NCBI GenBank assembly: GCA_012270555.1
Contig: JAAXIC010000008.1
Coordinates: 64,426-128,425, forward strand
DNA length: 64,000 nt
Origin: Chloroflexota bacterium
Lineage (GTDB): Bacteria > Chloroflexota > UBA11872 > VXOZ01
Direction of reading: 5' to 3'
The notes under the pieces were generated by a model, which worked only from the letters and a program-made list of their open reading frames with translations, was not told the DNA's origin and ran no database searches. The position numbers and the translations under genes were made by a program. Below are positions 17,249 to 20,704 of this stretch, piece by piece. Within the stretch, counting starts at the first letter, position 1; each line of letters begins with the position of its first letter.

Positions 17249-18316
17249 ATGACCAACCTCGACGACGAGCGTTCCTTTGCTCTGCATGACTCCGGCAATA
17301 TGGGAGCTCAGATTGCGGGTTTCCCCGCTGCTTGCGCTGCTGCTTGGGCAGAAGCGCAAAAGGTGTCGCTCCCCTTTGCCTATCGTGGGGTACAATCGGT
17401 GGTCATCCTCGGCATGGGGGGATCCGCCATAAGCGGCGATCTGGCGCGCGCACTTGGGGCGAAGACGGCTTCCGTGCCGATGGAGGTAATCCGCGGCTAC
17501 CACATTCCAGGATACGTTGACAGCAATACGTTGGTGATCGCCGTCAGCTATTCGGGCGACACTGAGGAGACCCTGGCGGCTTACGATGCGGCCTCTGAAA
17601 GAACCGGGTCGCTCATCGTCGTTGCAAGCGGCGGGAAGCTTCAAGCGCGCGCGCTGGCTGCCGGTATCCCTCACTATGCTATTCGGACTGCAAGCCAGCC
17701 GCGCGCCGCGTTGCCGCATCTCTACATGCCCATACTCCACGCATTGACCACGCTCTATCTCACTCGTTGTTCTGCGCGCGAAATCGAGGACGCCGCCAGC
17801 TTTATTGCGGATCAGGCGCCTGCCTTCGCTATTGATATTCCTGAAAAAGAGAATCCGGCCAAGAACCTGGCGCGTGCGCTCTATGGAAAGATTGTGAGCA
17901 TCTATGCGTCCGAGTTCCTTGGAGAAGTGGCGCGCCGTTGGAAGACCCAAATCAACGAGAACAGCAAGCAGTGGGCCGAGTTCGAAACCCTTCCCGAAGC
18001 GAATCACAATGCTGTCGTTGGGTATGCTCATCCACTTGGCAACACCGACTCAATCTGTGTCATCCAGTTGCACTCGCCGCTCTACCACGAACGGACACGA
18101 ATCGGAATGGAGGCAGCGCGAGAGTTGCTGGACGCTGCGTCGATAGCAAACAGACTGGTAGCCGTGCCAGGCCCAACCCCCTTGGCACAGCAGCTCTTTG
18201 CTATTCTGCTCGGCGACTACGTCAGCTACTACCTCGCAGTGCTCAACGGCGTAGACCCCACGCCGGTTGCGAACATCAATCACATCAAATCACGGCTGGC
18301 AAATGCAACAGTGTAG
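17249..18316 (+). CDS. Bifunctional phosphoglucose/phosphomannose isomerase
   Basis: A 355-residue SIS-domain protein that interconverts glucose-6-phosphate and fructose-6-phosphate, and mannose-6-phosphate likewise, by the short bifunctional PGI/PMI type found in archaea and some bacteria. The two sugar-isomerase domains are seen as GMGGSAISGDLA and AVSYSGDTEETLAA, followed by TQINENSKQWAEF and LPEANHNAVVGY with the catalytic Glu and His, and PVANINHIKSRL at the C-terminus. It begins 12 bases after the R3H ATPase gene. The restriction-modification genes that follow look like an insertion relative to this housekeeping run. Confidence 0.9.
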   Translation: MTNLDDERSFALHDSGNMGAQIAGFPAACAAAWAEAQKVSLPFAYRGVQSVVILGMGGSAISGDLARALGAKTASVPMEVIRGYHIPGYVDSNTLVIAVSYSGDTEETLAAYDAASERTGSLIVVASGGKLQARALAAGIPHYAIRTASQPRAALPHLYMPILHALTTLYLTRCSAREIEDAASFIADQAPAFAIDIPEKENPAKNLARALYGKIVSIYASEFLGEVARRWKTQINENSKQWAEFETLPEANHNAVVGYAHPLGNTDSICVIQLHSPLYHERTRIGMEAARELLDAASIANRLVAVPGPTPLAQQLFAILLGDYVSYYLAVLNGVDPTPVANINHIKSRLANATV

Positions 18317-18431
18317 ATAGCCTCTCAGTGAGGTGCTGCTTAAGTTTGAAAGGCTTCGTAGGCAACAGACTCCGTATAACCAGGTGTAGTAAACTCAAGG
18401 TGCACAGAGATTCTGCTACCGGACGGTATTG

Positions 18432-19775
18432 ATGGCGACCAAGCTTCCGCGCTTCTATGAGAAGCGAACAAACAGCACCACTGTTTCCAAGGACGCGAAC
18501 AAACTACGTCCCGAAGACCGCGCAATTCACCATTGGTACCGCTTTGTTCTATCTTTCCCTCCCCACCTCGTTCGGGACTACGTGGATCGGTTCGACATGC
18601 ACAGTTCGGACACTGTCCTGGACCCATTCTGCGGCGCTGGCACAACTTTGGTCGAGTGTAAAAAGCTAGGCATTGCGAGCATTGGGATTGAACCAAACCC
18701 CATGGCGCATTTCGCGAGTTCCTTGAAGGTGGACTGGTCAGTCGATAGTTCTGCGCTCTCCGACTACACCGACGAAGTCGTAGCATCTGCGCGAAGCGCT
18801 TTGGAGCATGATGGTGTTGACGACTGGAGTGACCTCCCGCTGCTCCAAAAAAGTGGAGCGTCGCGATCTCCATTGCGAGGACTCAGCCCTGAGCAGTCGA
18901 AGCTTCTGCTAAAAAACTCGATCAGTCCCATACCTCTGCATAAGACACTTGTTCTCCTGGATGCAATCGATGGGCATGGCCACTACCTGCTTCGACGATA
19001 CGCGCGGCTTGCGCTTGCGAACGCGTTGGTTCATCACATTAGCAACTTGAGGTTCGGGCCAGAGGTGGGAGTCGGTCGCATTAGGGATGATGCTCCAGTC
19101 TTAGAGGCGTGGCGGGATTGTATGCAGGCGATTATCCAAGACATTCGCCTCGTACAGGATAAAACCCATGTGCCTGCTCACGTGTTCAAAGCCGATTCAC
19201 GAGATACAGACCAAGTCTTGGAACCGGCCTCTGTCGATGCCGTGATTACTTCCCCGCCGTATCCGAATGAGAAAGACTACACACGAACTACACGGCTGGA
19301 GTCGGTAATCCTTGGACTGATACGGAACAGGAGTGAGTTGCGATCTCTAAAGATGGACCTCGTCAGATCCAACACCAGGGGGGTGTACAAGACCGACACC
19401 GACGACCGCGAGGTTCATCAACACAAGGAAATCCAAGGCCTTGCGGAGTCCATTGAGAATCGCCGTGTCCAACTTGGCAAGACATCGGGCTTTGAGCGCT
19501 TGTATCCCAGGGTAACTCAACTGTATTTTGGCGGAATGAGACGACACCTCGCTTCACTCAGGCCTGTATTGAAGCCAAAGGCGAAACTCGCCTACGTCGT
19601 AGGCGACCAAGCATCGTACCTAAGAGTGATGATTCGCACAGGGCACATCTTAGCCGATTTGGCCCGGTCATTGGGCTATGAAGTCACTGACATTGAATTG
19701 TTTCGCACGAGGCCTTCTACTGCCACAGGTACTCAGCTTCGTGAAGAGGTCGTGCTGCTAGAGTGGCCAGGATAG
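18432..19775 (+). CDS. Type II DNA methyltransferase (N4-cytosine or N6-adenine class)
   Basis: A 447-residue amino-methyltransferase that transfers a methyl group from S-adenosylmethionine to a base in a specific DNA sequence. The AdoMet-binding motif I is DPFCGAGTT near residue 65 and the catalytic motif IV is TSPPYPNEKDY in the second half, with a long central segment that may hold target recognition. The SPPY form is common in N4-cytosine enzymes but also seen in N6-adenine enzymes, so the modified base is not decided. The ATG at 18432 follows an in-frame TTG at 18429. The next frame, a probable endonuclease, continues directly after the TAG stop. Codon and base composition looks less GC-rich than the flanking housekeeping genes, suggesting acquisition by transfer. 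Confidence 0.88.
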   Translation: MATKLPRFYEKRTNSTTVSKDANKLRPEDRAIHHWYRFVLSFPPHLVRDYVDRFDMHSSDTVLDPFCGAGTTLVECKKLGIASIGIEPNPMAHFASSLKVDWSVDSSALSDYTDEVVASARSALEHDGVDDWSDLPLLQKSGASRSPLRGLSPEQSKLLLKNSISPIPLHKTLVLLDAIDGHGHYLLRRYARLALANALVHHISNLRFGPEVGVGRIRDDAPVLEAWRDCMQAIIQDIRLVQDKTHVPAHVFKADSRDTDQVLEPASVDAVITSPPYPNEKDYTRTTRLESVILGLIRNRSELRSLKMDLVRSNTRGVYKTDTDDREVHQHKEIQGLAESIENRRVQLGKTSGFERLYPRVTQLYFGGMRRHLASLRPVLKPKAKLAYVVGDQASYLRVMIRTGHILADLARSLGYEVTDIELFRTRPSTATGTQLREEVVLLEWPG

Positions 19776-20588
19776 CTGAAAACAGAGGCACGGCAGATTT
19801 CTCCTCAAAATCGGTATACGGCAATCATCGAGGCGATTTTCAGCGCGAAGCACAGGCTCGGACAACGAGAACTGGACTTCGAGCGTGAGGACATCATCAC
19901 ATTTGCAGGTAAATTAGGTATCGCTCTGCCCAAGAATCTTGGCGACTTGATCTACACGTTTCGCTATAGGACAGAACTCCCCGCTAGTATTCGAGCCACT
20001 GCGCCTGAAGGCGAAACCTGGATCATTCGATCCGCTGGTCGGAGTAAGTATCGTTTCGTTTTGGTCACTGATGTGCCGCTCATTCCCAACGCGAACCTCA
20101 CAGTAACCAAGGTGCCGGATGCAACACCAGGAATCATCGCCAAGTATGCGTTCAATGACGAACAATCCGTTTTGGCTCGTGTCCGTTACAATCGGCTGAT
20201 CGACATATTCTTGGGCATTGCCTGTTACTCTCTCCAAAGCCATCTGCGCACAACTGTCACTGGTATGGGTCAGGTAGAGACAGATGAGCTATTCGTAGGC
20301 GTGGATAAGAGCGGTTCGCAGTACGTCATACCTGTTCAGGCCAAGGGAGGGAACGACAGGCTCAATAGAGTTCAGATTGAGCAGGACATTGCCGTGTGCA
20401 GCGAGAAAATGCCGTCATTGATCTGTCGGCCGGTTGGAGCGCAGTTCATGAAAGATGACCTTATTGCACTCTTTGAGTTTGAGCAACAAGGTGATGACAT
20501 TAGAGTAGCTTCGGAGAAACACTACCTTCTGGTCTCTCCAGATGCAGTGACCGACGATGATTTAGCCAGATACCGACGGAGGCTATAG
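19776..20588 (+). CDS. Probable restriction endonuclease partner, no conventional start at its N-terminus
   Basis: The frame is open for 270 codons from immediately after the methyltransferase TAG (19773-19775), in the same frame. The first conventional start is a TTG at 19947, which would give 213 residues. Yet the 57 codons before it read like real protein (for example RYTAIIEAIFSAK and FEREDIITFAGKLGIALPKN), with no ATG, GTG or TTG. A CTG at 19776 is the first codon after the stop. The later sequence holds a candidate PD-(D/E)xK nuclease site: acidic residues in QVETDELFVGVD followed by PVQAKGG (QxK), then EQDIAVC and ICRPVGAQFM. This and the adjacency to the methylase suggest the cleaving partner. 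Options are CTG initiation, TAG read-through, a mutated start or an assembly error. Confidence 0.7.
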   Translation: MKTEARQISPQNRYTAIIEAIFSAKHRLGQRELDFEREDIITFAGKLGIALPKNLGDLIYTFRYRTELPASIRATAPEGETWIIRSAGRSKYRFVLVTDVPLIPNANLTVTKVPDATPGIIAKYAFNDEQSVLARVRYNRLIDIFLGIACYSLQSHLRTTVTGMGQVETDELFVGVDKSGSQYVIPVQAKGGNDRLNRVQIEQDIAVCSEKMPSLICRPVGAQFMKDDLIALFEFEQQGDDIRVASEKHYLLVSPDAVTDDDLARYRRRL

Positions 20589-20704
20589 CAGAGCATCAGA
20601 GAGCCAAGGCTGAAGTCAAGTTCCAGATTTCTAACCTCATCTGGGACGACAACGCCTGCGACCATCTTGCTGGCTAGCCACCCAGCTATTCCTCTCCGTA
20701 TGCT

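What the first reader, a model, noticed from the sequence alone, without database searches (positions are those of the whole stretch)
18432..20588. Methylase and nuclease in one frame separated by a single TAG, with no normal start for the nuclease
The methyltransferase ends at TAG 19773-19775 and the next 270 codons are open in the same frame. The first 57 of them have protein-like composition but no ATG, GTG or TTG. The nuclease-like part carries a candidate PD-(D/E)xK site. This could be a CTG-started gene, an M-R fusion with TAG read-through, a recently split fusion, or an error. Coupling nuclease synthesis to rare read-through would be an elegant way to keep methylase in excess, as restriction systems require.
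Basis: partly seen in the sequence, partly recalled or inferred. Interest (0 to 1): 0.72.

Follow-up and report, generated by a model that had tools for sequence, protein, structure and literature searches.

The report
Restriction enzyme with AUU start codon
A DNA-cutting enzyme that looks as if it lacked a start signal probably starts at the rare, weak codon AUU, as do relatives in several bacterial phyla, which may keep the cutter scarcer than the methylase that protects the cell's own DNA.

Summary
In detail: the methylase ends at TAG 19773-19775, the same frame stays open for 270 codons, and there is no ATG/GTG/TTG before TTG 19947. The explanation is neither TAG read-through nor a CTG start. 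Homologues show where the nuclease begins: about six codons before the Tyr of a conserved NRY motif. In the window that codon is ATT (19797-19799), 8 nt after an AGAGG Shine-Dalgarno. In 14 loci of one clade, with members in five named phyla plus Entotheonella, it is ATT or ATC; 13 of the 14 have no canonical start nearby, while 99 of 99 other non-fused relatives do. The methylase stop lies in all three frames relative to the nuclease, and 8 of 14 have an in-frame stop just upstream, so read-through or frameshift cannot be the shared mechanism. At this codon A and T are invariant and the third base varies. The N-terminal 50 residues are conserved, under purifying selection and part of a confident fold. 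The window organism's own infC (IF3) also lacks a canonical start. Best reading: an AUU/AUC-initiated, probably IF3-restrained restriction enzyme. Effects on expression are inferred, not measured.

The parts
18432..19775 (+). DNA methyltransferase gene of the pair (N6/N4 type, TSPPY motif), ending in TAG 19773-19775
   Evidence: Pfam N6_N4_Mtase E 3.4e-13; PADLOC MTase_II PDLC03224 E 1.2e-40; C-terminus EEVVLLEWPG conserved up to the stop in relatives
19784..19788 (+). Shine-Dalgarno AGAGG, 8 nt before ATT 19797
   Evidence: duplex energy -5.8 kcal/mol with the 16S tail; purine-rich stretch at the same place in all 14 AUU/AUC loci
19797..19799 (+). ATT, proposed start codon of the nuclease
   Evidence: position of the relatives' start codon; ATT or ATC in 14 loci
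19797..20588 (+). restriction endonuclease gene (263 codons and stop)
   Evidence: PADLOC REase_II PDLC03404 E 6.5e-114; purifying selection against L002; model pLDDT 92.8
19797..20078 (+). N-terminal part, residues 1-94, winged-helix-like in the predicted model
   Evidence: Rok DNA-binding domain Z 6.2 and other winged-helix rows, middling scores
20118..20534 (+). nuclease core, residues 108-246; D163 at 20283-20285, Q181-A-K183 at 20337-20345
   Evidence: invariant residues; Holliday resolvases, EndoMS, DrdV and BsmI among the rows at Z 5.2-6.9
18317..20700 (.). approximate extent of the inserted segment that carries the pair
   Evidence: absent between the flanking genes in 3 congeners (G033, G109, G213); similarity to the empty site resumes at about 20701

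Best explanation
The two genes are an ordinary Type II methylase and restriction endonuclease, translated separately from one tight gene pair. Shown by comparison: the nuclease start is the ATT at 19797-19799, at the position where relatives have ATG/GTG/TTG, and a clade of relatives keeps ATT or ATC there. Inferred: the initiator tRNA reads AUU with a third-base mismatch, helped by a Shine-Dalgarno 8 nt upstream and possibly by ribosomes that have just finished the methylase 21 nt before. IF3 disfavours such starts, so the nuclease is made at a low rate and methylase stays in excess, a design like infC itself and Streptomyces sigR. Split confidence: ATT/ATC is the start, about 0.93; it serves to keep the nuclease low, about 0.6; IF3 level really modulates it in the cell, about 0.45.
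For: (1) Of 92 non-fused relatives with a canonical start near NRY, 67 have it at codon -6 or -7 before the Tyr. (2) 12 of the 119 loci are not fused and have no ATG/GTG/TTG in codons -20 to -3: all 12 have ATT (8) or ATC (4) at -6. L002 (91% identical, ATT) and L014 (ATT, found by reading the locus) make 14. (3) The other non-fused loci, 99 of 99, do have a canonical start in that range. (4) The MTase stop is in frame 0 in 7, 1 in 5 and 2 in 2 of the 14; 8 of 14 have an in-frame stop within codons -14 to -8 and no canonical start after it, e.g. L007 TAA CGT ATC. (5) In 13 representatives codon -6 is A and T at 100% with a free third base (ATT 6, ATG 4, ATC 3), while the codons upstream show 5-19% amino-acid identity. 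(6) The 12 AUU/AUC rows that could be placed and 5 ATG rows form a 100/100 clade; ATT and ATC interchange at least 3 times inside it, e.g. the close sisters L010 ATC and L012 ATT. (7) Mean Shine-Dalgarno energy -8.3 (14 loci) against -5.3 (87 canonical) and -4.1 (5 ATG clade members). (8) The window genome's own infC has stop TGA, then GCT ATA GTC, then the conserved part, with AAGGAGGG upstream. (9) dN 0.038, dS 0.33 against L002; confident model including the N-terminal 50 residues.
Against: No expression, proteomic or ribosome data. The window's own Shine-Dalgarno (-5.8) is only about as strong as the canonical mean. The Shine-Dalgarno comparison is inflated by relatedness (p 2.7e-4 with 14 rows, 0.008 with 9 representatives, neither corrected for the tree). 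Five clade members use ATG, so AUU/AUC is not obligatory. L002 also has an in-frame ATG (-17) and TTG (-13) overlapping the methylase end. All clade members with a record title are metagenome-assembled; L008 and L011 lie on contigs of 7-10 kb, so their phylum labels are soft. Promoters were not studied, so transcription could set the ratio too.
Confidence: 0.8

Rival explanations
1. The nuclease starts at ATT/ATC, but the weak start has no regulatory role: it drifted from AUG and is tolerated because the Shine-Dalgarno is good and little nuclease is needed.
For: Five clade members use ATG at the same codon; changes between AUG and non-AUG number at least 3; no expression data exist.
Against: AUU and AUC persist and interchange (at least 3 changes) over long distances although one substitution would restore AUG; 0 of 99 relatives outside the set lack a canonical start; Shine-Dalgarno pairing is stronger in the set.
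Confidence: 0.3
2. TAG 19773 is read through at low rate to give a methylase-nuclease fusion.
For: Same frame in the window; true one-frame fusions exist in 7 of 119 relatives.
Against: Frames differ (0, 1, 2) among the 14 AUU/AUC loci; the stop is TAG, TAA or TGA; L011 has a second in-frame stop; codons between the stop and ATT are not conserved as protein.
Confidence: 0.03
3. The nuclease starts at CTG 19776, directly after the methylase stop.
For: CTG is a known weak start (recalled); AGGA lies just upstream of it; L002 has TTG at the equivalent codon.
Against: The codon is not conserved in the other AUU/AUC loci, and the seven codons after it diverge even from the 91% identical L002: 4 of 7 residues differ.
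Confidence: 0.05
4. The nuclease starts at TTG 19947, and the upstream frame is open by chance or is a relic.
For: It is the first canonical start in the frame.
Against: Eight residues invariant in 69 sequences lie upstream of it, with confident folded structure and dN 0.125, dS 1.12 over 49 codons; relatives start upstream.
Confidence: 0.02
5. Assembly error, or a recently broken gene that had ATG.
For: Draft assembly; no reads were seen; L014 in the same set has a one-base frameshift.
Against: 14 loci share ATT/ATC at the same codon; purifying selection.
Confidence: 0.02

Closest known systems
Streptomyces sigR-rsrA: GTC start repressed by IF3 (PMC5472188; abstract, discussion and passages read)
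   Same: A potentially harmful effector is encoded next to its antagonist and has a non-canonical start behind a strong ribosome-binding site, so that the antagonist stays in excess.
   Different: There the effector gene comes first, the start is GTC and the effect is proven; here the antagonist (methylase) comes first, the start is ATT/ATC and expression is untested.
infC, the IF3 gene: ATT in E. coli, ATC in Streptomyces (PMC5472188 passages)
   Same: AUN start with a Shine-Dalgarno; the window genome's infC is of this type too.
   Different: infC regulates itself; the nuclease would only be a target.
EcoVIII restriction enzyme limited by rare arginine codons (PMC6456624, passages)
   Same: A restriction enzyme kept low in translation by features near the gene start.
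   Different: Rare elongation codons there, the start codon itself here.
PADLOC PDLC03404 REase_II family
   Same: The window nuclease is a member by sequence (E 6.5e-114).
   Different: The 99 non-fused relatives outside the AUU/AUC set all have a canonical start in the same region.

Membership tests
Type II restriction-modification system | methyltransferase gene adjacent to a restriction endonuclease gene | tested here: met
   PADLOC MTase_II and REase_II hits; a methylase hit in 78 of the 81 loci (missing in L027, L080, L081, where the nuclease lies at the contig end)
Type II restriction-modification system | both enzymes act on the same target sequence | not testable with these tools
   recognition sequence unknown
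PD-(D/E)xK nucleases | conserved acidic residues and (D/E/Q)xK on the common core fold | tested here: inconclusive
   invariant TDE...QxK; resolvase, EndoMS and restriction-nuclease rows at Z 4.7-6.9, below 8
AUU/AUC-initiated genes (infC kind) | no ATG/GTG/TTG available; AUN codon at the conserved start position behind a Shine-Dalgarno | tested here: met
AUU/AUC-initiated genes (infC kind) | translation repressed by IF3 | not testable with these tools
   needs a reporter with altered IF3
Methylase-nuclease fusion made by stop read-through | nuclease in frame with the methylase in all members, with one stop between | tested here: not met
   frames 0, 1 and 2, several stop types, a second in-frame stop in L011

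The most novel reading that the evidence does not exclude
A horizontally spread restriction-modification lineage has put its nuclease under the ribosome's start-codon fidelity check: AUU/AUC plus a Shine-Dalgarno makes restriction depend on the host's free IF3, so the nuclease stays low in a new host and rises when IF3 is short. It would be a portable way, without any regulator gene, to have methylation precede restriction.
Probability: 0.4. Interest if true: 0.82.

Novelty: new variant of a known kind. Interest (0 to 1): 0.68.

Why it matters
Few bacterial genes are known to start at AUU or AUC; infC is the classic one. A conserved AUU/AUC start in a mobile defence gene, kept across several phyla and interchanging AUU with AUC, offers a simple answer to how a restriction system without a control protein could keep the cutter below the protector. 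It also shows that gene callers will miss or shorten such nucleases: the first canonical start here lies 50 codons late and cuts into the predicted DNA-binding part. Both points can be tested with a one-base change in a laboratory E. coli reporter.

Tried and rejected
Rejected: TAG read-through, CTG start, TTG 19947 start, sequencing error and pseudogene (reasons under rivals). A programmed frameshift was also considered: in L004, L005, L009, L016 and L143 the nuclease frame is open upstream in another frame than the methylase, but other AUU/AUC relatives have stops there, so no common slip is possible.

Led nowhere: PDB sequence searches gave nothing convincing (best phmmer E 0.0021, a TrkA-domain protein; profile, none). 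Foldseek gave no match at E <= 0.001, and VIA-align Z values are middling. No relatives in phages or, at that sensitivity, in viral contigs. RNA folding of 19740-19840 shows nothing unusual (z 0.59). A genome-wide pattern of GGAGG-spacer-ATT was uninformative (51 hits against 34 for the reversed control). Pfam and NCBIfam have no family for the nuclease. The first infC script missed most genes and was replaced.

Literature: searches joining AUU/ATT/unusual/non-AUG start with restriction-endonuclease terms found no paper. One search (non-canonical start codon + restriction-modification) listed 4 papers and one search listed 2; seen as listings only, except PMC5472188; none has a title about a restriction gene's start. 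A 2025 review of restriction biology (PMC12707154, passages) names antisense RNA, hairpins, coupling and rare codons as translational controls and has no occurrence of 'start codon' or 'initiation codon'. Subscription papers and REBASE could not be searched, so novelty is provisional.

Limits of the counts: one search kept 80 of 107 relatives. The tree used 71 of the 119 loci; L143 (truncated) and most rows under 58.5% identity were left out, and L014 (frameshifted) was not among the 119. One search used 69 of the 79 references listed; the ten dropped include L069, which has a stop at the first codon, and close copies. In the energy comparison 'canonical' starts were chosen by script as the ATG nearest codon -6.5, else the nearest GTG/TTG.

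Full report
Observation. The coordinates and the reading frame are as stated. The methylase runs 18432-19775 and ends in TAG; the same frame is open for 270 more codons; the first ATG/GTG/TTG is TTG 19947. The nuclease matches the PADLOC REase_II profile PDLC03404 over residues 11-267 of the 270 (E 6.5e-114) and no Pfam or NCBIfam family.

Where homologues start. 80 related loci were fetched and more came from whole-genome searches; 119 distinct loci cover the nuclease N-terminus. Most hold an N-R-Y motif (query residues 12-14). Counting codons back from the Tyr, 67 of 92 relatives with a nearby canonical start have it at -6 or -7. The window has ATT at -6, that is 19797-19799.

The AUU/AUC set. 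12 of the 119 loci are not fused and have no ATG/GTG/TTG in codons -20 to -3; all 12 carry ATT (8) or ATC (4) at -6. Two more belong to the set: L002, the congeneric copy at 91% identity, with ATT at -6 but also an ATG and a TTG overlapping the methylase end; and L014 (Entotheonella), with ATT at -6 and a one-base frameshift further on. One of the 12, L143, is a second, truncated copy in the genome of L005. The other 99 of 99 non-fused loci have a canonical start in the same range. Classification of the 119: 92 canonical, 12 none, 7 with only a far canonical start (L002 among them), 7 fused, 1 too short to classify.

Why it is initiation and not read-through. Across the 14 loci the methylase stop stands in frame 0 (7), 1 (5) or 2 (2) relative to the nuclease, and is TAG, TAA or TGA. 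Eight of 14 have an in-frame stop between codons -14 and -8 with no canonical start after it. L007 reads TAA CGT ATC and L011 reads TAA ATT ATC just before the conserved part. In 13 representatives (9 AUU/AUC, 4 ATG) codon -6 is A 100%, T 100% and free at the third base, whereas the eight codons upstream have 5-19% amino-acid identity; the one invariant base there is a G in the Shine-Dalgarno. An invariant AU with a tolerant third base fits what IF3 tests in vitro: strict first and second pairs, a graded third pair (PMC10158994, abstract and passages).

Shine-Dalgarno. Mean duplex energy with the 16S tail is -8.3 kcal/mol at codon -6 for the 14 loci, -5.3 for 87 canonical relatives at their own starts, and -4.1 for 5 ATG members of the same clade. 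The direction fits compensation for a weak start, as suggested for sigR (PMC5472188, discussion). The window itself is only -5.8, and relatedness inflates the test.

Tree. In a tree of 71 nucleases the 12 AUU/AUC rows that could be placed and 5 ATG rows (L003, L006, L013, L019, L024) form a clade with 100/100 support. At least 3 changes between AUG and non-AUG, and 3 between AUU and AUC, are needed inside it. Record titles place AUU/AUC members in Chloroflexota, Binatota, Pseudomonadota, Gemmatimonadota and Nitrospinota, plus Entotheonella; L004, L005 and L009 lie on records of 3.9-4.3 Mb. All titled members are metagenome-assembled.

The gene is alive. Against L002 the nuclease has dN 0.038 and dS 0.33; the 49 codons between ATT and TTG 19947 have dN 0.125 and dS 1.12. 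The model has mean pLDDT 92.8 with a well-folded N-terminus. Residues 108-246 resemble resolvases, EndoMS and restriction nucleases, and residues 1-94 winged-helix domains, both at middling Z. Eight residues that are invariant in 69 sequences lie before TTG 19947.

Host control. The IF3 gene of the window's genome also lacks a canonical start: TGA, then GCT ATA GTC, then the conserved part, with AAGGAGGG upstream. So this organism probably initiates at an AUN codon elsewhere too. Across the 14 genomes displayed the infC picture is mixed: most have some canonical codon further upstream, and I did not settle their starts.

Context. In three congeners (G033, G109, G213) the flanking genes are adjacent and the pair is absent; in G149 the pair is at the same site. 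It is therefore an insertion of about 2.4 kb, as expected of a mobile R-M system.

Mechanism. Shown by comparison: start position, codon identity, conservation and insertion. Inferred: low initiation rate, IF3 restraint, possible reinitiation after the methylase stop (3-21 nt upstream in the 14 loci) and methylase excess. The closest worked-out logic is sigR-rsrA, where changing GTC to a canonical start overproduces the effector relative to its antagonist (PMC5472188, abstract).

Novelty. In the searches made I found no report of an AUU/AUC-initiated restriction nuclease, and passages of a recent review do not mention start codons. The enzyme family is known; the way it is initiated is the new variant.

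Noticed in passing
17249-18316; L165-L167: The gene directly upstream of the inserted pair is only 63-69% identical to the three congeners that lack the pair, while its neighbours are 85-94% identical; the congener with the pair shares it at 90%. The allele may have been exchanged together with the insertion.
   Followed up: partly
L020, L028, L034, L036, L042, L093, L095: In 7 of 119 loci methylase and nuclease form one uninterrupted reading frame, a true fusion; the five that were in the tree sit in three separate places.
   Followed up: partly
L113 1514-2323; L114 2738-3547: Small mobilizable plasmids of Klebsiella and Salmonella carry the same nuclease family, annotated hypothetical, next to a DNA cytosine methyltransferase instead of this methylase type.
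   Followed up: no
L143: The genome of L005 holds a second, truncated copy of the nuclease with the same ATT start region.
   Followed up: no
L124 (infC of the window's genome), reverse strand: infC appears to start at ATA; an out-of-frame ATG overlaps the in-frame TGA right after the Shine-Dalgarno.
   Followed up: partly
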